From IMG/VR virus record IMGVR_UViG_3300042691_018638, positions 1 through 26,854 of that record: DNA of 26,854 nucleotides; one strand, written 5' to 3'. Shown here piece after piece: positions 55 through 15,088 of the stretch (its first letter is position 1; every line of letters starts with the position of its first letter). Source of the DNA: a virus. The notes under the pieces were generated by a model. It saw only the letters and a list, made by a program, of their open reading frames with translations, was not told the DNA's origin and ran no database searches. Made by a program: the position numbers and the translations under genes.

Positions 55-130
55 TGGTACCAGCAACGGGACTCGAACCCATGGCCAACTGCTTAGAAGG
101 CAGTTGCTCTATCCACTGAGCTATGCTGGC
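55..130 (-). tRNA. tRNA-Arg (anticodon UCU)
   Basis: The reverse complement folds into a full cloverleaf of 76 bases. It has a 7-bp acceptor stem closed by a G-U pair, a D arm with GCTC/GAGC, an anticodon arm ACTGC/GCAGT around the loop CTTCTAA, and a T arm ATGGG/CCCGT with loop TTCGAGT. The anticodon TCT reads AGA (and AGG by wobble) arginine codons. The discriminator base is A, and the 3' CCA is encoded in the DNA (bases 55-57). It is the last gene of the leftward transcription unit, behind the glycosyltransferase genes, with hairpins on both sides. Phage tRNAs of this kind usually supplement codons that are rare in the host. That role is inferred here. Confidence 0.95.
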
Positions 131-170: not shown

Positions 171-734
171 CTAAAGTTTTTGATCGTCGGGAGTACGGAG
201 GTAGTTGTAGTAACCTAGGTTCTCATACAAACAAAGGTGGCCACCTTGCTGTGCGACACGCTCTGCAAGAATGCCATCAGCTACGTACTCTAATTCGTAT
301 CGAAGCTTCTGCATGATCCGACCACGAACCATGTAGCATGAGGTATCGGTGTTGCCGACTTTAGGATTTGGTGCGGGCTGCAATCGTACGTTGTTGTTTT
401 GCCACACTTGCCCCCAGCTTACCATGTTTAATTCCCCATCGTTCAACGTACTGACTCGTGCATACCAATCGGGATGAATAATGTTATCATCGTCGAGGAT
501 GTAAATCCAATCGAGATCGTCGAAGTACATGTGGTCGAGTGCAAAGTTGCGATTAGAATTACCAAAATGACCGGTACTTGGTGAGCGATAGATTGTTGCT
601 TTTAACCCACCCCCCTCTGGCATCTCGGTAACGGATGCGTCAAGCACGATAGTCCATGTACACTCGGGCGGAATTGATTGCTGCATTCTCGGAAGATTTT
701 CGGGTCGTGTGCATGGCGTGATGATGTGAATCAT
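171..734 (-). CDS. GT-A fold (family 2-like) glycosyltransferase
   Basis: 187-aa protein with features of a small inverting GT-A glycosyltransferase, which moves a sugar from a nucleotide-sugar donor to an acceptor in the cytoplasm. The N-terminus is a beta strand followed by TPCTRPENL (residues 6-14), typical of the family. GNSNRNFALD (59-68) resembles the conserved region before the metal site. The DDD triad at 81-83 in YILDDDNIIHPDW fits the metal/nucleotide-sugar motif. NTDTSCYMVRG (128-138) resembles the segment before the acceptor site. At under 200 residues it is a minimal catalytic domain with no membrane anchor. ATG at 734 was chosen because AGGGAGG lies 5-6 bases upstream; a longer version from TTG at 755 would run into the preceding gene. 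It lies 10 bases after a second glycosyltransferase gene. The acceptor is unknown. Confidence 0.8.
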   Translation of the reverse strand: MIHIITPCTRPENLPRMQQSIPPECTWTIVLDASVTEMPEGGGLKATIYRSPSTGHFGNSNRNFALDHMYFDDLDWIYILDDDNIIHPDWYARVSTLNDGELNMVSWGQVWQNNNVRLQPAPNPKVGNTDTSCYMVRGRIMQKLRYELEYVADGILAERVAQQGGHLCLYENLGYYNYLRTPDDQKL

Positions 735-744
735 TAATCCCTCC

Positions 745-1551
745 CTATCCATCAACTAAATTTTTCATAAATTCTGGGTTGCATCGATTGATTTGGTGTA
801 AGATAACGTATACCTCGCCCTCCTCGTTCAATACCTTATTGTCCTGTACGTTTAAGTCCTCGAAAGCAACACTGTCGAGTGTCAATATGCGCGAACTCTT
901 GTGCGGTAGAATCTTTCTAAAGTCTGCGTCGGTGTGATTGTAAATGTAAATATTGTACAGTGCTTGGTCGTAGACGTTGTTAGAACCCGGCCGTCTATCT
1001 TGTACATTAACATAGAACTTTAAACAATCTAGGATCCCCGCATACTTACCTAAGATTGTACCCGCACACACGACCGGCTGACCCTCAAAGTTATTGTTAT
1101 TGTAGCTGGCAACAACAGATGACTGCTCAATCCAGTACCTGTTTAAGCCGGAGCTACCGTTGCCTCTGTCCGAAAGTATGTTCTGCTCTGCCGCACAGTA
1201 CAGCTGCTCGTCAAATTCTACAGAAAAGGGATCGCTCTGAAAAATGACATCGTCTAGATCACAGAGCATTATTTTATTAATATCCCCATCGGGCCATTTT
1301 GATAGTATATCGTAGTAGATTGCATAACGATGCAGCATCAGGTCATAGTTAAAAACAAAATCACTGTAAATTTGAAGGTTGTGCTCAGCGCACAAGTCCT
1401 CTAATTCCTTAAACACTTTGCCTTTCTCGCACAGTACGATTACCTTACAGTCTTGGTTATACTTTCTTAAGCTTTTTGCAAAGTAGTGTATTCCACCCTT
1501 GTCAGTTTTTAAGCTACCGTACCCACTGTAAACGCCAAAAATAACATTCAT
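745..1551 (-). CDS. GT-A fold glycosyltransferase (GT8/GT34-like)
   Basis: 268-aa soluble protein. The segment INKIMLCDLDDVIFQSDPF (residues 91-109) is the DxD-type signature of retaining GT-A glycosyltransferases: two hydrophobic residues, then D-x-D-D, then a QSDPF turn as in GT8 and GT34-type enzymes. The N-terminal strand VIFGVYSGYG, the strand VIVLCEK (37-43) and the region QPVVCAGTILGKY around residue 158 fit a nucleotide-sugar-binding domain. ATG at 1551 follows AAGGAGA at good spacing. It lies between the methyltransferase gene and the smaller glycosyltransferase, on one transcript with 10-18 base gaps. The exact CAZy family, donor and acceptor cannot be assigned by eye. Other options are a capsule- or glycoprotein-modifying enzyme, or one acting on modified DNA bases. 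Confidence 0.72.
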   Translation of the reverse strand: MNVIFGVYSGYGSLKTDKGGIHYFAKSLRKYNQDCKVIVLCEKGKVFKELEDLCAEHNLQIYSDFVFNYDLMLHRYAIYYDILSKWPDGDINKIMLCDLDDVIFQSDPFSVEFDEQLYCAAEQNILSDRGNGSSGLNRYWIEQSSVVASYNNNNFEGQPVVCAGTILGKYAGILDCLKFYVNVQDRRPGSNNVYDQALYNIYIYNHTDADFRKILPHKSSRILTLDSVAFEDLNVQDNKVLNEEGEVYVILHQINRCNPEFMKNLVDG

Positions 1552-1568: not shown

Positions 1569-2228
1569 CTAGCTGCCACACGGAGTAGCGTTTCGGACAA
1601 GCACAAGCATTTTATCGTCCAATTCGCTGCCGGAGGGTCTGAGGCTGTGCTCCGCGTCGATAAACGTTGCTGAGATGTAGTACTTCATGTACGGGGCCAA
1701 TGCTGATTCGTAGTCAGACTCTGACCGAGATCTAAAGATGTCTTCAATGATAAAGTAACCGCCGGGCTTTAGATACTCGTGCACAAACTTAAGCACGCGC
1801 ATTTGATCGTTAAAATCGTGAGTTGCGTCGTCGATAATAATGTCAAACTCGCTGACCGCGCGACGAAAACCATCGGCAATAGAAGCTTCTGATGTTACAT
1901 CCATATGAATGTACCGTGTGTTGTTGAGTGCATCTCCGACAGCCTTAGTTATCTTTTCAGGATAATACTCCCAGCCGGTAAGTTGCGCTGCGGGGAAGTA
2001 TTCTCGCCAGCACATCATGGAGTGGTTACTTTCAATGCCAATTTCTCCCACGATCAGTGGTTTGTGGCGAATAGATGAGAACAGGAAGTCGTAGATAGCC
2101 GTGTACGGATGTCGACGGTTACTCCACGTGTCAATAATGTACGGAGACTTATCCGTAGGATATTTTACTCCAAGATCACAAAGCGGTGTGCGGCTGTTCG
2201 ACGAATCAATAGTAAGTTTGTTAATCAC
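1569..2228 (-). CDS. Class I SAM-dependent methyltransferase
   Basis: 219-aa protein with a Rossmann-type methyltransferase core. Motif I is LIVGEIGIESNHSM (residues 58-71), the acidic end of strand 2 is GWEYYPE (85-91), motif IV is FDIIIDDATHDFNDQ (128-142), and the post-motif strand is LKPGGYFIIEDIF (153-165). The segment TDKSPY followed by HPYTAIYDFLF (residues 25-50) is typical of small-molecule or sugar O-methyltransferases found near glycan genes (CmcI/macrocin-O-methyltransferase-like). It is not typical of DNA methyltransferases, and no DPPY- or PCQ-type motif is present. The start is GTG at 2228 with AAAGGAAA about 8 bases upstream. It is the first gene after the hairpin at 2268-2300 and precedes two glycosyltransferases, so methylation of a sugar or sugar acceptor is the likeliest job. 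Substrate unknown. Confidence 0.8.
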   Translation of the reverse strand: MINKLTIDSSNSRTPLCDLGVKYPTDKSPYIIDTWSNRRHPYTAIYDFLFSSIRHKPLIVGEIGIESNHSMMCWREYFPAAQLTGWEYYPEKITKAVGDALNNTRYIHMDVTSEASIADGFRRAVSEFDIIIDDATHDFNDQMRVLKFVHEYLKPGGYFIIEDIFRSRSESDYESALAPYMKYYISATFIDAEHSLRPSGSELDDKMLVLVRNATPCGS

Positions 2229-2307: not shown

Positions 2308-2595
2308 CTACTCAGGCAGTTGTTGTATGACTGGACCATCCTCGGTCTTACTGGCCAACAGTTCTTTGAGGGTGTCCTCATCGGTCAGGGTGTAGACCAT
2401 ATCAAAGATGCCAGCGTTGCAGGTAGCGCAGAGTGAGAGTGGGAGGATGCCAACCCAACCAATCGTTCCCCATTCTTCGTCATCAAACGGACTGTCACAA
2501 ATACTGCAGGGATTACCTGCGGGATGAAGTGGATCCTTATATGGATCGTACTCCGGCATTTTTATTACTTCTGGTGCTGTTGGTTCTAGCGTCAT
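2308..2595 (-). CDS. Small zinc-ribbon-like hypothetical protein
   Basis: 95-aa acidic protein of unknown function. Two CxxC pairs (CSIC near residue 31 and CATC near residue 56), about 25 residues apart, suggest a treble-clef or ribbon zinc site. The C-terminus is acidic and helical (LTDEDTLKELLASKTEDG). The chosen ATG at 2595 overlaps the stop of the upstream Nmad1-like gene in an ATGA arrangement, a common sign of translational coupling. An ATG at 2604 (three residues longer, GGGGG close upstream) is also possible. It is the last gene before the hairpin at 2268-2300. A protein- or nucleic-acid-binding accessory role is plausible but unproven. Confidence 0.75.
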   Translation of the reverse strand: MTLEPTAPEVIKMPEYDPYKDPLHPAGNPCSICDSPFDDEEWGTIGWVGILPLSLCATCNAGIFDMVYTLTDEDTLKELLASKTEDGPVIQQLPE

Positions 2596-3002
2596 TTTCC
2601 CCATTTCCCCCTTCGATAAATTATCATTATGATACAGTAGCTGGCTAAATCCATAAGCGTGTCATCCAAAGATTCATTGCGGGGAGTTTTTGGTGCGGTA
2701 AAGTTACCCGTGGACAAATCCCAACCCAGTAAGTTCATCAAGCGCGCAACCTTATCCCAGATACGCACGGCCACACCGGTCTCACCAACCGCGTTTACAT
2801 TCCACGGCCCGTAGTCGGCGCTCTTTTGCTGATGCATGTCCCACAGTGCCTCTAAGACATCGCGGAATTCTGCCTTCTGCTCTGCATACGTAGGAAGCTC
2901 GGCCATGTAAGCGGTCTTTTTAAGGTTAGGCTTGACCACCTGTTCTACAGTCAGCCCCAATCGATCGGTCATTTCCTTTACCAAGTCCGACTTGTTAATC
3001 AT
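2592..3002 (-). CDS. Nmad1 / DUF1599-like nucleotide modification associated protein
   Basis: 136-aa all-helical protein. The pattern SADYGPWNVNAVGETGVAVRIWDK (about residues 60-83) followed by ARLMNL and then ESLDDTLMDLASYCIIMII is the signature I recall for nucleotide-modification-associated domain 1 (DUF1599). This family is common in phages and often sits near thymidylate synthase, deaminase or base-modifying genes. Its biochemical activity is not established. ATG at 3002 is supported by GAGGAG 7 bases upstream and an 8-base overlap with the end of thyX. Upstream in-frame starts would extend about 45 bases into thyX and lack an SD. The direct overlap with thyX suggests that the two products act on the same nucleotide pool or modified-base pathway. 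Confidence 0.75.
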   Translation of the reverse strand: MINKSDLVKEMTDRLGLTVEQVVKPNLKKTAYMAELPTYAEQKAEFRDVLEALWDMHQQKSADYGPWNVNAVGETGVAVRIWDKVARLMNLLGWDLSTGNFTAPKTPRNESLDDTLMDLASYCIIMIIYRRGKWGK

Positions 3003-3708
3003 TCCAGTACTCCTCTTCAAACGCTTTTTCTTTTGCAAAACGCACATTACACGCAGGGATAATTACCGGGAACTTCGTCTCTAGTAAGGCCCACGCTGCT
3101 ACGGCGATCTCGCGGTGCTCTTTCTGTGTCGATGGGTGCATGCGTACCTGACAGTAGTGCATCCATGATCGAAGACTGCCCTTGAAGTACAGGCGGGAGA
3201 GTGTTAACCCCTCGGGCAGCACCGCACGCAGCTGTTCCTTGGCAATGCCCCGTTGTAAGCCCCAGTCGTAAGTAAATCGTGCGTAGTTAATCACTGCCTG
3301 TAACCGTGCATACCATTGCTCACGCAGCTCTCGCGTGGCCTCGGTCTTTTCTAGCTCAATACTGTTCTGCCGATTCTTAGTATCTTGCAACCGTGGCTCA
3401 CGAGTAGAGAACCCCAGCGCAGTTGTCGGGTCAGCATATCGCTGACTAAATTCCTGCACTGCAAAGCTGCGATGTCGAATCATCTGCCGGGATATATCTC
3501 GCGTAGTAGTAACCTCCATAGTTACATCAACCATGTCAAACGGACTCCAATGTTTCTCGCGAATCAAGTGATAAATCAACTTGGGTGCTGACCAGTGGTT
3601 GTGTTGGCCAGCAGGATTAGACACGCGAGCGTTATAAATTACCAGCTCCTCCGCGGTCATGTTCAACTCTGGCTCGGGCTGCGTAACGGACACAATACTA
3701 ATTGTCAT
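2995..3708 (-). CDS. thyX: Flavin-dependent thymidylate synthase ThyX
   Basis: 237-aa enzyme that methylates dUMP to dTMP using FAD, NADPH and methylene-tetrahydrofolate. The ThyX motif RHR-x7-S-x-RY is complete (R78 H79 R80, S88, R90 Y91 in RHRSFAVQEFSQRY). A second conserved block, RAVLPEG (161-167), leads to the substrate-binding helix SLRSWMHYCQVR (178-189). Length is normal for the family. ATG at 3708 was chosen because GGAAGG lies just upstream; an in-frame TTG at 3720 adds four residues. It overlaps the XRE-type gene by 11 bases and the Nmad1 gene by 8, so it sits in the middle of a coupled operon. Phages carry thyX to secure dTTP or make a precursor for modified thymines. The catalytic motif gives no sign of altered chemistry. 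Confidence 0.95.
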   Translation of the reverse strand: MTISIVSVTQPEPELNMTAEELVIYNARVSNPAGQHNHWSAPKLIYHLIREKHWSPFDMVDVTMEVTTTRDISRQMIRHRSFAVQEFSQRYADPTTALGFSTREPRLQDTKNRQNSIELEKTEATRELREQWYARLQAVINYARFTYDWGLQRGIAKEQLRAVLPEGLTLSRLYFKGSLRSWMHYCQVRMHPSTQKEHREIAVAAWALLETKFPVIIPACNVRFAKEKAFEEEYWND

Positions 3709-3907
3709 AGTGCCTTCCAATAATTAATAGCGGATCAAACTCAAAGAACTTAGCGATTGCGATGCCTTCAGAGATGCTAGGTTTTTTAGTACCCTCTAGT
3801 ATATCCTCAAGGCGTTTAGCTGAGATGCCTGCATACTCGGCCAACTCTTCAACAGTTGTACGGGCAGCACGCATCTCAGCCTTAATGATCTCAGTGGTTT
3901 TGGTCAT
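3698..3907 (-). CDS. XRE/Cro-type helix-turn-helix protein
   Basis: 69-aa protein made almost entirely of one HTH_3 (lambda Cro/CI-like) domain. The helix-turn-helix spans about residues 17-40 (TVEELAEYAGISAKRLEDILEGTKKPS), with the usual ISxxxLxxILxGxxxPS pattern, and a final helix EGIAIAKFFEFDP follows. There is no dimerisation or cleavage domain, so it is closer to a Cro-like regulator than to a full CI repressor. It overlaps the upstream zinc-ribbon gene by 17 bases and thyX by 11. The SD is weak, so translation is probably coupled. It may autoregulate this cluster, for example at the predicted promoter inside the phosphoesterase gene, but no operator repeat was identified. Confidence 0.85.
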   Translation of the reverse strand: MTKTTEIIKAEMRAARTTVEELAEYAGISAKRLEDILEGTKKPSISEGIAIAKFFEFDPLLIIGRHYDN

Positions 3908-4076
3908 TCTGATGTTGCGTCTGTGCGTAGTGATAGCGCATCAGCCATTCCTCCTGTCGGTAGTCATGCCGGGTTGCATTGCTGCCCTCTGGGAGGTGTA
4001 GGGTGGTGTCTTCCGCGGTCTCTCCGCACGTGCAATCGTCCAGCTCCAAGCCACAGTTCTCGCATTCGTCTACCAT
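3891..4076 (-). CDS. Small zinc-ribbon hypothetical protein
   Basis: 61-aa protein. The N-terminus holds a compact cysteine cluster, CENCGLELDDCTCG (residues 5-18), with two closely spaced Cys pairs that probably bind one zinc ion. The rest is polar and rich in His, Gln and Asn, with RHDYRQEEWLMRYHY as a possible helix. ATG at 4076 is preceded by ACGGAGG at 5-6 bases, which supports it as a real gene despite its size. It overlaps the phosphoesterase stop by 7 bases. Function unknown. A predicted extended -10 promoter at 4127-4135 would make it the first gene of a thyX-containing transcript. Confidence 0.7.
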   Translation of the reverse strand: MVDECENCGLELDDCTCGETAEDTTLHLPEGSNATRHDYRQEEWLMRYHYAQTQHQNDQNH

Positions 4077-5089
4077 TGCTGCCTCCGTAAGTAGGTGAGG
4101 TAACTAGCTGCTACCTCTAAGTCAGAATTATACCACACTTTTCCGTCTGGGAAAAGGATTAGTGCACCACATCCGTTGGTCATGGTGTCAGCAAAACCGA
4201 TCTCTTTCGAAAAACTATCCACACGCTTGTAAGCACCAGTCAGGATTGCCAACCGTTCCTTGTTGTGACGATAGAACGGACGCACAAGCGTACCGATGTG
4301 TGTGTGACCGCCTACACCAATATCAAAGGGCAGGGTCATGCGATCGTACCCTACCTCAATACCATGCGTGGGGTTAAAGATACTGGATGACTTCCATTGA
4401 TGACGGATCAGCATATCCCAGCTACCAGTACCGCAAGACACCTGCACCCGCACCTCGAATGGATCGTACAGTACACACGTATTGGTCAGGTAGTTCGGGA
4501 TGATGTCGATGCCAGACAACTTCTTGGTCCAGTTGTCGTGGTTACCGCTGACAACGATCAACAATTTCTCAGAGATTAGCTCAAGCCAACGGCGGAACAT
4601 CAAGATTTCGTTCTTAAAAGACACCGCTTGGTTGCGCTGCAACGCTTGGAGCTTGCCGATAATCCAGTTGTCGATACCGTCCCCGTGAAACACTGCGTAC
4701 ATGCCGTCAGTCTTGGAGATCAGGTCGGTGTCTCTCTTTATCGCATCGTAATCAGTGCCCTCACTGCCAATATGCAGATCAGAAAGAAACGCAAGAGCCA
4801 CTGGTTGATCACCCAGATGAATTGCAGTGTGCCGACGTTCTTCAGCTGCTTTACGCACAACCTTGTGCACGCTACCAGCCGCTTTCCATAATGAATCCGC
4901 GTAGTCTGCATCATACTGCACCATGTCTACGCCGCGGATGGTGGGCGTTGGCTGATTACCCATGCGGCGAGTTAATTCAATTTCAGCTTCTTCACGAGTA
5001 GCGAATCGCCCGCCGTGGATGTATTTCTTTTGTTCTTTATCCCACCAGCGAATACCGTATGAATTATTTGAAAAATAAATACCCTTCAT
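4070..5089 (-). CDS. Calcineurin-like metallophosphoesterase with N-terminal Arm/AP2-like domain
   Basis: 339 aa. The metal-binding motifs of the calcineurin-like phosphoesterase fold are all present: DLH (D103, H105), GDGIDN (135-140), GNHD (181-184), a lone H229, and GGHTH (259-263). Such enzymes hydrolyse phosphodiester or phosphomonoester bonds with two metal ions. The first 40 or so residues (KGIYFSNNSYGIRWWD, then GGRFATREEAEIEL) resemble the small DNA-binding Arm/AP2-type beta-sheet domain at the N-termini of integrases and homing endonucleases. That suggests a DNA or DNA-end substrate. No SbcC-like ATPase partner is nearby. ATG at 5089 overlaps the previous stop as ATGA with GAGG upstream. 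Nuclease, nucleotidase and protein phosphatase activities all remain possible. Confidence 0.85.
   Translation of the reverse strand: MKGIYFSNNSYGIRWWDKEQKKYIHGGRFATREEAEIELTRRMGNQPTPTIRGVDMVQYDADYADSLWKAAGSVHKVVRKAAEERRHTAIHLGDQPVALAFLSDLHIGSEGTDYDAIKRDTDLISKTDGMYAVFHGDGIDNWIIGKLQALQRNQAVSFKNEILMFRRWLELISEKLLIVVSGNHDNWTKKLSGIDIIPNYLTNTCVLYDPFEVRVQVSCGTGSWDMLIRHQWKSSSIFNPTHGIEVGYDRMTLPFDIGVGGHTHIGTLVRPFYRHNKERLAILTGAYKRVDSFSKEIGFADTMTNGCGALILFPDGKVWYNSDLEVAASYLTYLRRQQW
4127..4135 (-). promoter_or_regulatory. Predicted extended -10 promoter inside the phosphoesterase gene
   Basis: Read on the minus strand this is TGGTATAAT, an exact TGn extended -10 joined to a consensus TATAAT. No good -35 hexamer lies at 17 bases (TTTTCC), which is tolerated by extended -10 promoters. 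It would start transcripts about 45 bases before the small zinc-ribbon gene and so drive the XRE, thyX and Nmad1 genes. The same 9-mer occurs twice more in the window. Here it encodes Trp-Tyr-Asn, so chance is possible. Confidence 0.35.
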
Positions 5090-7912: not shown

Positions 7913-9826
7913 CTACTTATCATACTTAGTAGAAATTGCGGGGTCTACCTTCACCGTGTGGCCAAGATTCGGTAGCACTTCCTGTGCTGCTTCTTCCATG
8001 GCACCCTTCAAGATTGTGCTGGCTGTCTCCGCGTACCCAACCGTGCTCTCAAGAATGATTTCATCGTGCACGGTGGACACAATCACCGCCTGTCGCAGGT
8101 CCAAGCGATCAAACGCTTTGATCAGCGCAAGCTTAACCATGGTGGCACTGAGCCCTTGGATCGGGAAGTTCATTGCCTCACGCTCAGCCGCCTCTTTCTT
8201 CCACCGTTGGTGAAACTCTGCCCGATTCCACCATCGCTTACGTCCGTAACTGTCAGCAACCCAGCCAAACAATACTGCACTGCGGGCACTCTTCTTTAGC
8301 CACGCCGTAGCCTCGGGAAACATCTGCTTCCACTGCTCAATAATCTCATCACCCTGCTTCGGTGTATACTTCACACCAAGCGGACCCAACTGAATGGTCA
8401 TCTGCTTGGCCAAAGAATCACCGCCAACAGAATAAGCAATAGAATAGTTGACCATTTTAGCGACGTCTCGCCATATTTTGTACGGGTGTTCTTTCTTATT
8501 CTTATCATTGATCTCCGTCACCCCCAGTACGTGCTTCGCAACGTATGTGTGTAGGTCTCCAAGGTTGGCCACAAGTGCAGCATCGTTGCTAGCGTCTGCA
8601 ATGATAACCAACTCAATCGTAGAGTAGTCCGCAATAATCAGCCGGCGATTATCATTGACGGCAAACGCGTGGCGAATACTCTCGTTCACCCCAAGGTTCC
8701 GCATCTTCTGGTCCGACGGCAAGTTCTGCAGGTTAGGGCGTGAACTGCTAAAGCGACCAGTCGCTGCACCGATCTGATTAAAGGTACAGTGGATGCGCTT
8801 GGTCACTGGGTTCTCCATCTCCTGTAGCCCCTTGACATAGGTTGACTGTAGCTTACGAGCACCCACTAAGTATGCGTACATACGAAGTTGAAAGTTCTCG
8901 TAGCGACCGAAGGCATCAATCGACTCCAGCAAGTCGTCATCGAACAACGCTGAGTCCATCTCGTACCGCTCGGCAGACTTACGGTGTTTGAAGTCCCACT
9001 CAGTAATAGTACGTGCGTTAAGATCGGTGACGTTGATGCCGACATCGTTGAAGTACTTTAGCATCTGCTGGTTCGAGGAACTGTTAAGCGCCTTGTACCC
9101 ATCACGACTAAAGACCACCTGATCGGCAGCACCATTCTCAATAACCATACGCTGTACTGCTTTCTCAGCGTTGTTAATCAGTAGCTGCAGCACAGGCTCC
9201 AGCCCACTGAGGTGCTCCTTCTTGAACGGCATGCCGTAGTACTCCATCATGGCTACTACCGGAATTAGGTCAGACTCCAGCTTGTACACCTTCTCGATCT
9301 CCGCGTCTGCAATCAGAATCTGATGGACGGGGTACAACTGCTGTAGCACAGTGACATCCTTAGCTGCATACTCAAGTTGCTCGGCGGTAATTTCGGTGAA
9401 GCCATTCGTGAACTGGTCACGCACGGTCTTGTCTAGGGTCAACCCAAGCCGACGATCAGCAATAGCAGCTAAGTTGTTCTGCACACCCAGTTGACCAGCA
9501 GTGAGCATGGCTTCTACAATACGGGTGTCGTGAATGTTCCGCATGACGAACCGACCGAACTTGTAGAACACCTTGATGTCAAAGCTTGCGTTCTGCAATA
9601 CCTTGAGTTGCTCACCACCAAGCATAGGTGCAAACAAACGCACCAGTTCCAAGGGAAGCCGTGTAAAGTCGTACACGTACACATCGGTATCGGTAGCAAT
9701 CTGCACCAACAAGAGTGTGTACGTGTGTGGGTCAAGGCCAGTCGTCTCAGTGTCCACATACAGCGTGCCCGTCAATTTTGGTAGCGACGCGTGGAACTCT
9801 TGCTCATTGATGATTAGTTGGTACAT
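7913..9826 (-). CDS. polA: Family A DNA polymerase with 3'-5' exonuclease
   Basis: 637-aa replicative polymerase. The DEDDy proofreading domain is complete: VDTETTG (Asp25, Glu27), NASFDIKV (Asn79, Asp83) and YAAKD (Tyr153, Asp157). The polymerase domain has TGRFSSSRPNLQNLP (356-370), motif A IADYSTIEL (398-406, Asp400), motif B R453-x3-K457-x3-Y461-x3-Y465, FPIQG (554-558) and motif C VHDE (586-589). There is no 5'-3' nuclease domain, so it is T7-like in build and slightly shorter (T7 pol is 704 aa). The residue equivalent to E. coli Phe762 is Tyr461, as in T7, which is linked to weak discrimination against dideoxynucleotides. ATG at 9826 has GAGG at 5 bases and overlaps the previous gene by 13 bases. 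No intein or intron interrupts it. Confidence 0.97.
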   Translation of the reverse strand: MYQLIINEQEFHASLPKLTGTLYVDTETTGLDPHTYTLLLVQIATDTDVYVYDFTRLPLELVRLFAPMLGGEQLKVLQNASFDIKVFYKFGRFVMRNIHDTRIVEAMLTAGQLGVQNNLAAIADRRLGLTLDKTVRDQFTNGFTEITAEQLEYAAKDVTVLQQLYPVHQILIADAEIEKVYKLESDLIPVVAMMEYYGMPFKKEHLSGLEPVLQLLINNAEKAVQRMVIENGAADQVVFSRDGYKALNSSSNQQMLKYFNDVGINVTDLNARTITEWDFKHRKSAERYEMDSALFDDDLLESIDAFGRYENFQLRMYAYLVGARKLQSTYVKGLQEMENPVTKRIHCTFNQIGAATGRFSSSRPNLQNLPSDQKMRNLGVNESIRHAFAVNDNRRLIIADYSTIELVIIADASNDAALVANLGDLHTYVAKHVLGVTEINDKNKKEHPYKIWRDVAKMVNYSIAYSVGGDSLAKQMTIQLGPLGVKYTPKQGDEIIEQWKQMFPEATAWLKKSARSAVLFGWVADSYGRKRWWNRAEFHQRWKKEAAEREAMNFPIQGLSATMVKLALIKAFDRLDLRQAVIVSTVHDEIILESTVGYAETASTILKGAMEEAAQEVLPNLGHTVKVDPAISTKYDK

Positions 9827-13734: not shown

Positions 13735-13905
13735 TTATTCACCACTCTCCTGCATTACGGCGATTTCTCTCGCCATCGAATTTAGCTCATCAAGAATATC
13801 TTTCCGAACTACGCTGGTAACTATACCACGAGCTTCCAACCGTGTCAAGAGTCTTTTGATGTACTTCTTGATCACGCCATCAAACTTTTTGTTTAAGTGC
13901 TTCAT
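13735..13905 (-). CDS. Small basic helical hypothetical protein
   Basis: 56-aa protein, basic in its first half (KHLNKKFDGVIKKYIKRLLTRLEARG) and acidic in its second (KDILDELNSMAREIAVMQESGE). Two helices are likely. ATG at 13905 was preferred over the earlier ATG (13920) because GGAGA lies at the right distance; it overlaps the glycosyltransferase gene by 26 bases. The 3' end reaches to two bases before the SSB start, and the SSB's own promoter lies inside this gene. No known family is recognised. The position next to SSB hints at a replication-accessory role. Confidence 0.6.
   Translation of the reverse strand: MKHLNKKFDGVIKKYIKRLLTRLEARGIVTSVVRKDILDELNSMAREIAVMQESGE
13820..13848 (-). promoter_or_regulatory. 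Predicted sigma70 promoter for the ssDNA-binding protein gene
   Basis: On the minus strand TTGACA (13843-13848, perfect) is separated by exactly 17 bases from TATAGT (13820-13825, 5 of 6), which also has the TGn extended -10. It lies inside the small 56-aa gene and would start an mRNA about 80 bases before the ssDNA-binding protein ATG. With the strong terminator after that gene, it defines a short transcript carrying only this gene. Confidence 0.6.
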
Positions 13906-15088
13906 CAATAATCTCCACAAACTGACGCGCGATCACATCCCAGTTAAATTTCTTTTGGGTCATGTGTTCAAAACCGCGCTGACCTAGCTCCAGCCGATAC
14001 TGCTTGTCAGTGTACAGCTTGTGTAATGTGGCGATAGCACTTTCCATTTCAGTGACGTGATGAATTGTGTTCAAGCCACGATCAGTAAGCGCGGGCCATG
14101 GGTAGATCTCCATGTACTCGGCATTACCCTCTGGCCACTCGGCCAACGCTGAGTGACGTGGGATAATCACAGGACAGGCAACTGCCATCGCTTCGGCCAC
14201 TGGCAAACACCAGCCCTCTGCAGCGGTAGTAGTGAAGAACACATCGGCGACGTTATACACCATGTTGAGCTGCTCCACAGGTAGTCCCGCATCAGGACGG
14301 ATGTTTGGGGAGGAAATCGCCAACCGCTCCTCAATCCCGAGGTAGGTGGCCCACTGCAAGACATCGATACCGAAGTCCTGCAACGCACCGTGATAGTAAA
14401 AGCGCACGTTTGGAGGAAGGTCGTACCGCTTCACCCACTCGGCGAAGTAGTACATGGTGAGATCAATACGCTTGCGCGGTTGATTGCGTTGCAAACAAAG
14501 TACAATGTAATCATCCTCACCAAGCATCATGTTCTTCTTCAACGTCTTTTTGTCGGGTAATGGATAAAACGACTGCGTGTTAACTCCGTGAGGAATTACG
14601 GCTACATTTTTAAGCGCAATGTCGGGTGGTCTGTTCTCTAACTCGCGCTTGCCGAAGTTTGTATAGGATACAACACGATCGTATTGTTGAAGACCCTCCA
14701 CAAATTCACTCTTAATGTTCTCCGCATCGATCGGAGTGTAGGCGATAAACTTTGCCTTAAATGCTGGATTGTCCGCTTTGTACTTTGCAAAAACCGTAGC
14801 ATAATCACGGCAAATCCACGGGTCGTTCAACACAAACACAACGTCAGGTTGAATACGCGTCAGCATCTCGGCTAGACGCGTAACACCCCAGACCTCACCG
14901 CCAGACGACGCAGGGTACACCTTTAATCCTTCAATCAATGGGGAATAATCCCCGTAGTAGTTAACCCCAAGCACATGCAAGTCATAAATTTTCTTGAATG
15001 TACGTATAAGGTTAGTACTAACTACCCCAAATCCAGTTTGTACTGGAAAGTCTCCGATGTATAACATCTTTTGTACTGGTCGTGACAT
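13880..15088 (-). CDS. GT4-type (GT-B fold) glycosyltransferase
   Basis: 402 aa. It has two Rossmann-type halves as in GT-B enzymes. The N-terminal half has LYIGDFPVQTGFGVVS (9-24), a Gly-rich loop near the acceptor site. IPHGVNTQSFYPL (165-177) marks the domain junction seen in GT4 enzymes, QRNQPRKRIDL (200-210) is the nucleotide-binding loop, and AAEGWCLPVAEAMA (289-302) holds the E-x7-E motif (Glu291, Glu299) that binds the donor sugar. Retaining transfer from UDP-, GDP- or ADP-sugar is expected. There is no signal peptide, so it acts in the cytoplasm. ATG at 15088 has AAGGAG at good spacing. It is far from the other glycosyltransferases (171-1551) and lies in a replication/regulatory block. 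The acceptor is unknown. Confidence 0.88.
   Translation of the reverse strand: MSRPVQKMLYIGDFPVQTGFGVVSTNLIRTFKKIYDLHVLGVNYYGDYSPLIEGLKVYPASSGGEVWGVTRLAEMLTRIQPDVVFVLNDPWICRDYATVFAKYKADNPAFKAKFIAYTPIDAENIKSEFVEGLQQYDRVVSYTNFGKRELENRPPDIALKNVAVIPHGVNTQSFYPLPDKKTLKKNMMLGEDDYIVLCLQRNQPRKRIDLTMYYFAEWVKRYDLPPNVRFYYHGALQDFGIDVLQWATYLGIEERLAISSPNIRPDAGLPVEQLNMVYNVADVFFTTTAAEGWCLPVAEAMAVACPVIIPRHSALAEWPEGNAEYMEIYPWPALTDRGLNTIHHVTEMESAIATLHKLYTDKQYRLELGQRGFEHMTQKKFNWDVIARQFVEIIDEALKQKV

What the first reader, a model, noticed from the sequence alone, without database searches (positions are those of the whole stretch)
2592..3708. ThyX and Nmad1 genes overlap and may form a nucleotide or base modification pair
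thyX and the DUF1599/Nmad1-like gene overlap by 8 bases, with an SD in the thyX 3' end. Nmad1 domains were linked by comparative genomics to modified-nucleotide and modified-base systems, but the activity is unknown. Together with three glycosyltransferases and a methyltransferase in the same window, the set could supply a modified base in the phage DNA.
Basis: partly seen in the sequence, partly recalled or inferred. Interest (0 to 1): 0.6.

Follow-up and report, generated by a model that had tools for sequence, protein, structure and literature searches.

The report
Phage thymidylate gene with Nmad1 partner
A phage carries a thymine-nucleotide-making gene (thyX) overlapping a small gene of an uncharacterised family (Nmad1/DUF1599); the pair is real and recurs beside other nucleotide-supply genes in unrelated phages, so it most likely helps build ordinary DNA precursors rather than a chemically modified base.

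Summary
ThyX (3708-2995, minus strand) overlaps a DUF1599/Nmad1-like gene (3002-2592) by 8 bases, with AGGAG inside the thyX end. Both genes are under strong purifying selection (dN/dS 0.03 and 0.06 against a 45.5-kb sibling contig). The Nmad1 call is below Pfam's cut-off for this protein but secure through relatives and predicted fold.

The overlap itself is ordinary: 17 of 29 consecutive gene pairs in the window overlap. The pairing is not universal (ThyX in 3 of 44 Nmad1 contigs; Nmad1 in 2 of 50 ThyX contigs). It recurs in at least four lineages: the window clade, L041 (reversed order, again an 8-base overlap), crAss-like phages, and L353. In L041 and the crAss-like phages the company is dUTPase, PolA and thioredoxin, i.e. 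canonical dTTP supply.

The base-modification reading is not supported. No ThyA-type hydroxymethylase, TET/JBP or other modification enzyme was found. One of the three glycosyltransferases has no recognised family and is missing from the sibling. The methyltransferase resembles sugar O-methyltransferases of the kind that, with glycosyltransferases, decorate phage capsids.

Nmad1's chemistry remains unknown; a MazG-like nucleotide pyrophosphohydrolase is a weak structural lead.

The parts
2995..3708 (-). thyX, flavin-dependent thymidylate synthase, 237 aa, RHRx7S motif intact
   Evidence: Thy1 2.3e-36 and TIGR02170 1.6e-37; motif; PDB 2cfa/4fzb; dN/dS 0.03 against sibling
2592..3002 (-). Nmad1/DUF1599-like gene, 136 aa, all-helical; invariant K60, Y64-G65, R80, D83-K84, R87, E110, D114, D118, Y122 in the 62-sequence alignment A2
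   Evidence: phrog_1485 4.4e-15; A1/A2 alignments; model pLDDT 84.9; viral fold hits labelled Nmad1; dN/dS 0.06
2995..3002 (-). 8-base overlap ATGATTAA: start of Nmad1 and stop of thyX; ATGATTGA in the sibling
3010..3014 (-). AGGAG Shine-Dalgarno-like site of Nmad1, inside the thyX coding end, 7-nt spacer
   Evidence: read from the sequence
3698..3907 (-). HTH_3 (Cro/CI-type) small protein just upstream of thyX, overlapping it by 11 bases; kept in G001 and L177
   Evidence: HTH_3 6.5e-7; synteny
2308..2604 (-). 98-aa protein with two CxxC pairs downstream of Nmad1 (13-base overlap), kept in G001 and L177
   Evidence: no family match
1569..2228 (-). class I methyltransferase like sugar O-methyltransferases; same operon, probably separate function
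   Evidence: Methyltransf_24/31; PDB 3ssm 3e-7 and 8ia9 demethylmacrocin O-MTase 2e-5
171..755 (-). putative GT-A glycosyltransferase, weak family-2 match; kept in G001 and L177
   Evidence: Glycos_transf_2 E 0.005, below cut-off
13880..15088 (-). GT4-type glycosyltransferase, far from the pair
   Evidence: Glycos_transf_1 1e-6; PDB 3oy2 B736L 3e-18
7913..9826 (-). family A DNA polymerase upstream in the same gene run
   Evidence: DNA_pol_A 4e-64

Best explanation
thyX and the Nmad1 gene are two co-translated genes of a phage replication/nucleotide-supply operon. ThyX methylates dUMP to ordinary dTMP (inferred from a conserved enzyme family with intact motif). Nmad1 is a small all-helical protein that most likely acts on the nucleotides feeding or leaving that step. 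The specific guess is a nucleotide-binding or nucleotide-hydrolysing helper that shapes the dUTP/dCTP/dTTP pool for the phage polymerase. Shown: the genes, the overlap, purifying selection, and recurrence of Nmad1 next to thyX, dUTPase, polA and thioredoxin in unrelated phages. Inferred: co-translation, that Nmad1 acts on nucleotides, and what reaction it does. No modified base is needed to explain the locus, and the sugar-type methyltransferase and glycosyltransferases downstream probably decorate virion proteins.
For: ThyX identity. Selection on both genes. L177, at 54% ThyX and 61% Nmad1 identity, keeps HTH-thyX-Nmad1-CxxC protein-MTase-GT. L041, an independent lineage (29% ThyX, 42% Nmad1), has dUTPase > Nmad1 > ThyX > thioredoxin-like, with an 8-base Nmad1/thyX overlap. 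Crassvirales cr108_1 has RNR, dUTPase, PolA, Trx, Nmad1, phosphoesterase and thymidylate synthase within 8 kb on one strand; bajarodcaudo virus 1 has dUTPase, polymerase, DUF1599, Trx and ThyX; PhiCrAssBcn18 has DUF1599 a few genes before ThyX. Further IMG/VR contigs are similar. Thy1, dUTPase and RNR are described as nucleotide-metabolism genes of crAss-like phages in PMC7886860. Four of 9 lineages with both genes have them within 2 kb, nominal P 0.001. PDB fold hits include DCTPP1 and other MazG-type pyrophosphatases, sub-significant.
Against: Most Nmad1 phages have no ThyX: 41 of 44 contigs and 0 of 7 further records from the streptococcal-type set searched whole. There Nmad1 sits by the primase: one conserved protein (Toprim-primase-like by inspection) lies 1-2 genes upstream in 103 of 125 loci. 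So its role cannot be tied to dTMP alone. Most ThyX phages lack Nmad1. No Nmad1 activity is known, and sequence profiles do not link it to MazG above shuffled controls. The P value assumes uniform gene placement, which phage modules violate, and the nine lineages are only those reached by these searches.
Confidence: 0.6

Rival explanations
1. One reading: ThyX, Nmad1, the glycosyltransferases and the methyltransferase together make and decorate a modified base in phage DNA.
For: Pfam's family name is 'Nucleotide modification associated domain 1'. The block thyX-Nmad1-CxxC-MTase-GT is kept in window, G001 and L177. Glycosyltransferases and a methyltransferase are present.
Against: No ThyA-type hydroxymethylase in 44 Nmad1 contigs including the sibling. 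No TET/JBP, base kinase or pyrophosphorylase domain in Pfam scans of the window and the sibling's right end. The MTase resembles sugar O-MTases. One GT is absent in the sibling. MTase+GT sets are reported to modify capsid and tail tube in mycobacteriophages (PMC11600133). The other Nmad1-thyX lineages sit with dUTPase, Trx and RNR instead.
Confidence: 0.1
2. More specific form of the best explanation: Nmad1 is a diverged all-alpha NTP pyrophosphohydrolase (MazG/DCTPP1-like) that makes dUMP or dCMP from the triphosphates for ThyX, or cleans the pool.
For: PDB fold search lists DCTPP1 (7mu5, 6sqz, 2a3q) and AF1178 (4qgp) at probability 0.44-0.63, TM about 0.46 by target length. No MazG domain was found in the window or sibling and no dUTPase in window, sibling or L177 contigs. 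Acidic D83, E110, D114, D118 are conserved.
Against: No fold hit is significant (E above 0.6). Profile comparison is at the level of shuffled controls. The EExxE...ExxD metal site is not preserved (K84 and R87 where acids would stand in the trial alignment). dUTPase is already present in L041 and crAss-like phages.
Confidence: 0.3
3. Nmad1 is a general replication-module or counter-defence factor, and its pairing with thyX is incidental.
For: Most Nmad1 genes lie beside a conserved primase-like gene in contigs without ThyX (PMC10221047). A nucleotide-modification-associated domain is among predicted defence domains in DefensePredictor (PMC13092281).
Against: Independent recurrence next to thyX and dUTPase in several lineages and in both gene orders.
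Confidence: 0.25

Closest known systems
ThyX flavin-dependent thymidylate synthase (PF02511, TIGR02170)
   Same: Full-length match, RHRx7S motif, closest solved structures annotated thymidylate synthase (2cfa, 4fzb)
   Different: Nothing notable
Nmad1 / DUF1599 (PF07659; phrog_1485)
   Same: Same conserved K..DYG..N / R.WDK..R / E...D...D..Y pattern, same predicted fold as Nmad1-labelled viral proteins
   Different: Scores below Pfam's cut-off on its own; family has no known activity
crAss-like phage nucleotide module (Thy1, dUTPase, RNR, PolA)
   Same: Nmad1 near ThyX, with PolA in the same gene run
   Different: No dUTPase found in the window or sibling and no RNR in the Pfam scans; Nmad1 abuts thyX directly
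Mycobacteriophage O-methyltransferase plus glycosyltransferase virion-glycosylation genes
   Same: MTase next to GT; MTase homologues in mycobacterial prophages lie beside GT genes
   Different: Low identity (27%); target not tested here
MazG/DCTPP1 all-alpha NTP pyrophosphatases
   Same: Sub-significant fold resemblance
   Different: No sequence-profile support; metal-binding motif not conserved

Membership tests
ThyX | Thy1/TIGR02170 profile over cut-off | tested here: met
   125.8 bits vs 24.8; 129.1 vs 87.9
ThyX | RHRx7S motif | tested here: met
   RHRSFAVQEFS at residue 78
ThyX | dUMP methylation with CH2-H4folate and FAD | not testable with these tools
   needs an assay
Nmad1/DUF1599 | Pfam PF07659 gathering score by the protein itself | tested here: not met
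   14.6 bits vs 25; the profile is 61 positions and a domain-level cut-off, so homology was tested by other routes below
Nmad1/DUF1599 | Homology to accepted members through intermediates | tested here: met
   phrog_1485 4e-15; aligned relatives match PF07659, best 3.9e-8; L041 member over cut-off
Nmad1/DUF1599 | Same predicted fold | tested here: met
   BFVD Nmad1-labelled hits, probability 1.00, best E 5.4e-5
MazG-type NTP-PPase | MazG profile match | tested here: not met
   no Pfam hit; hhalign score at shuffled-control level
MazG-type NTP-PPase | EExxE...ExxD metal site | tested here: not met
   WDKxxR...E...D...D instead
MazG-type NTP-PPase | All-alpha NTP-PPase fold | tested here: inconclusive
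   several sub-significant PDB hits
Phage DNA base-hypermodification system | ThyA-type (hydroxymethyl)pyrimidine synthase or TET/JBP oxygenase | tested here: not met
   PF00303 0 of 44 contigs including sibling; none in Pfam scans; contigs may be incomplete
Phage DNA base-hypermodification system | Modified nucleosides in virion DNA | not testable with these tools
   needs LC-MS

The most novel reading that the evidence does not exclude
Nmad1 is a new enzyme or partner of the phage dTTP pathway: a nucleotide-processing protein recruited several times next to ThyX and dUTPase, in both gene orders, giving the first assignable function to a widespread uncharacterised phage family.
Probability: 0.35. 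Interest if true: 0.55.

Novelty: new member of a known kind. Interest (0 to 1): 0.3.

Why it matters
Nmad1 is found in over 100 phage contigs here and in crAss-like, streptococcal and lactococcal phages, yet has no known function that I could find. The dUTPase/Nmad1/ThyX/thioredoxin neighbourhoods point to the nucleotide pool and say which substrates to test first. They also caution that the family's name does not imply modified DNA.

Tried and rejected
Single-sequence structure prediction was poor (pLDDT 51) and was replaced by a 62-sequence alignment (84.9).

PDB sequence searches with Nmad1 profiles found nothing meaningful.

Profile-profile comparison with MazG, twice, with reversed, ThyX and column-shuffled controls, gave no signal.

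A survey of cellular PF07659 in one phylum gave 1 of 296 genomes, so there was no cellular context to use.

The paper usually credited for Nmad (Iyer 2013) is not held, so its argument was not read. Text searches for Nmad1/DUF1599 gave nothing functional.

I considered the 8-base overlap as evidence in itself and rejected it: overlaps are routine in this window.

Full report
What is there. The window is one 26,854-base virus record. On the minus strand, thyX (3708-2995) is followed by a 136-aa gene (3002-2592). They share 8 bases (ATGATTAA), and AGGAG sits 7 nt before the second start, inside thyX. ThyX is a clear flavin-dependent thymidylate synthase with an intact RHRx7S motif. The second protein misses the Pfam DUF1599/Nmad1 cut-off on its own (14.6 vs 25 bits). 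It belongs to that family through phrog_1485 (4e-15), through homologues of which all six match PF07659, and through a confident predicted model whose best viral matches carry the Nmad1 name.

Is it real and constrained? A sibling contig of 45.5 kb (G001, IMGVR 3300027973_001824) is colinear with the window. Against it thyX has dN/dS 0.03 and Nmad1 0.06, and the 8-base overlap is kept although the thyX stop codon changed from TAA to TGA. The overlap alone means little, because 17 of 29 neighbouring gene pairs in the window overlap. A more distant relative, L177, keeps the order HTH, thyX, Nmad1, CxxC protein, methyltransferase, glycosyltransferase at 54% (ThyX) and 61% (Nmad1) identity, with thyX and Nmad1 adjacent but not overlapping.

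How general is the pairing? A pattern scan brought in 119 further Nmad1 stretches. Only the sibling and L041 have thyX near Nmad1, and ThyX is present in 3 of 44 whole Nmad1 records. From the ThyX side, 1 of 80 loci has Nmad1 within 5 kb and 2 of 50 whole records have it. So it is not an obligatory pair, and neither family predicts the other. In most of these contigs one conserved protein, which looks like a Toprim primase, lies one or two genes upstream of Nmad1 (103 of 125 loci; the primase reading is by inspection). In a Streptococcus phage Nmad1 lies by VRR-NUC and primase genes (PMC10221047).

Where they do pair. L041, an unrelated phage (29% ThyX, 42% Nmad1 identity), has dUTPase, Nmad1, thyX and a thioredoxin-like gene in a row. 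Nmad1 and thyX again share 8 bases, but in the reverse order. Crassvirales cr108_1 has RNR, dUTPase, PolA, thioredoxin, Nmad1, phosphoesterase and thymidylate synthase within 8 kb on one strand. Bajarodcaudo virus 1 has dUTPase, polymerase, DUF1599, thioredoxin and ThyX. PhiCrAssBcn18 has DUF1599 a few genes before ThyX. Several more gut and rumen-type contigs agree. Thy1, dUTPase and RNR are described as nucleotide-metabolism genes of crAss-like phages in PMC7886860. Taking one representative per lineage with both genes, 4 of 9 have them within 2 kb, against a nominal P of 0.001 for uniform placement. Phage modules are not uniform, so that number is a guide only.

What it probably does. ThyX makes dTMP from dUMP (established for the family). 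The recurrent neighbours put Nmad1 in the supply of dTTP and other precursors to the phage polymerase. Its reaction is not known. A fold search gave several DCTPP1/MazG-type pyrophosphatases at probability 0.44-0.63, but none significant. Sequence profiles do not separate MazG from shuffled controls, and the MazG metal-site acids are not kept. I therefore hold 'nucleotide-pool protein' at about 0.6 and, within it, 'MazG-like pyrophosphohydrolase' at about 0.3.

Why not a modified base. Known hydroxymethylated pyrimidines start from ThyA-superfamily enzymes (PMC7824862; PMC8670742). None was found in 44 Nmad1 records including the sibling, and no other modification domain appeared in Pfam scans. 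The methyltransferase resembles sugar O-methyltransferases (3ssm, 8ia9), and phage homologues lie beside glycosyltransferases. The GT4 resembles glycosyltransferase B736L (3oy2; a chlorovirus protein, from my own knowledge). Such methyltransferase/glycosyltransferase sets modify capsid and tail-tube proteins in mycobacteriophages (PMC11600133; PMC12363180). One of the three glycosyltransferase candidates has no family match and is missing from the sibling. The conserved block in L177 does keep the methyltransferase and one glycosyltransferase near the pair, so the reading is not excluded, only unsupported.

Limits. Contigs are incomplete. A 5155-residue open frame at the left end of the sibling was not scanned. 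The founding paper on Nmad domains could not be read. No experiment on any Nmad1 protein was found.

Noticed in passing
window 55-130 (-): tRNA-Arg gene with anticodon TCT at the end of the gene run; similar tRNA-Arg stretches occur in cyanophages and a Bacteroides phage.
   Followed up: no
window 2308-2604 (-): 98-aa protein with two CxxC pairs, no family match, conserved between Nmad1 and the methyltransferase in G001 and L177.
   Followed up: partly
window 4070-5089 (-): Phosphoesterase-like protein (phrog_7339, DNA repair exonuclease); metallophosphoesterases recur near Nmad1 in other phages (cr108_1; a phosphoesterase-like cluster in 13 loci).
   Followed up: partly
L006-L124, Nmad1 loci: In most contigs from the pattern scan, Nmad1 sits one or two genes after one conserved Toprim-primase-like protein and before PDDEXK-like genes, without any ThyX or ThyA found.
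   Followed up: partly
window 745-1551 (-): Glycosyltransferase-like gene present in the window but missing from the otherwise colinear sibling G001: a recent gain or loss.
   Followed up: partly
L128:2-15469: Open frame of 5155 residues at the left end of the sibling contig, not analysed.
   Followed up: no
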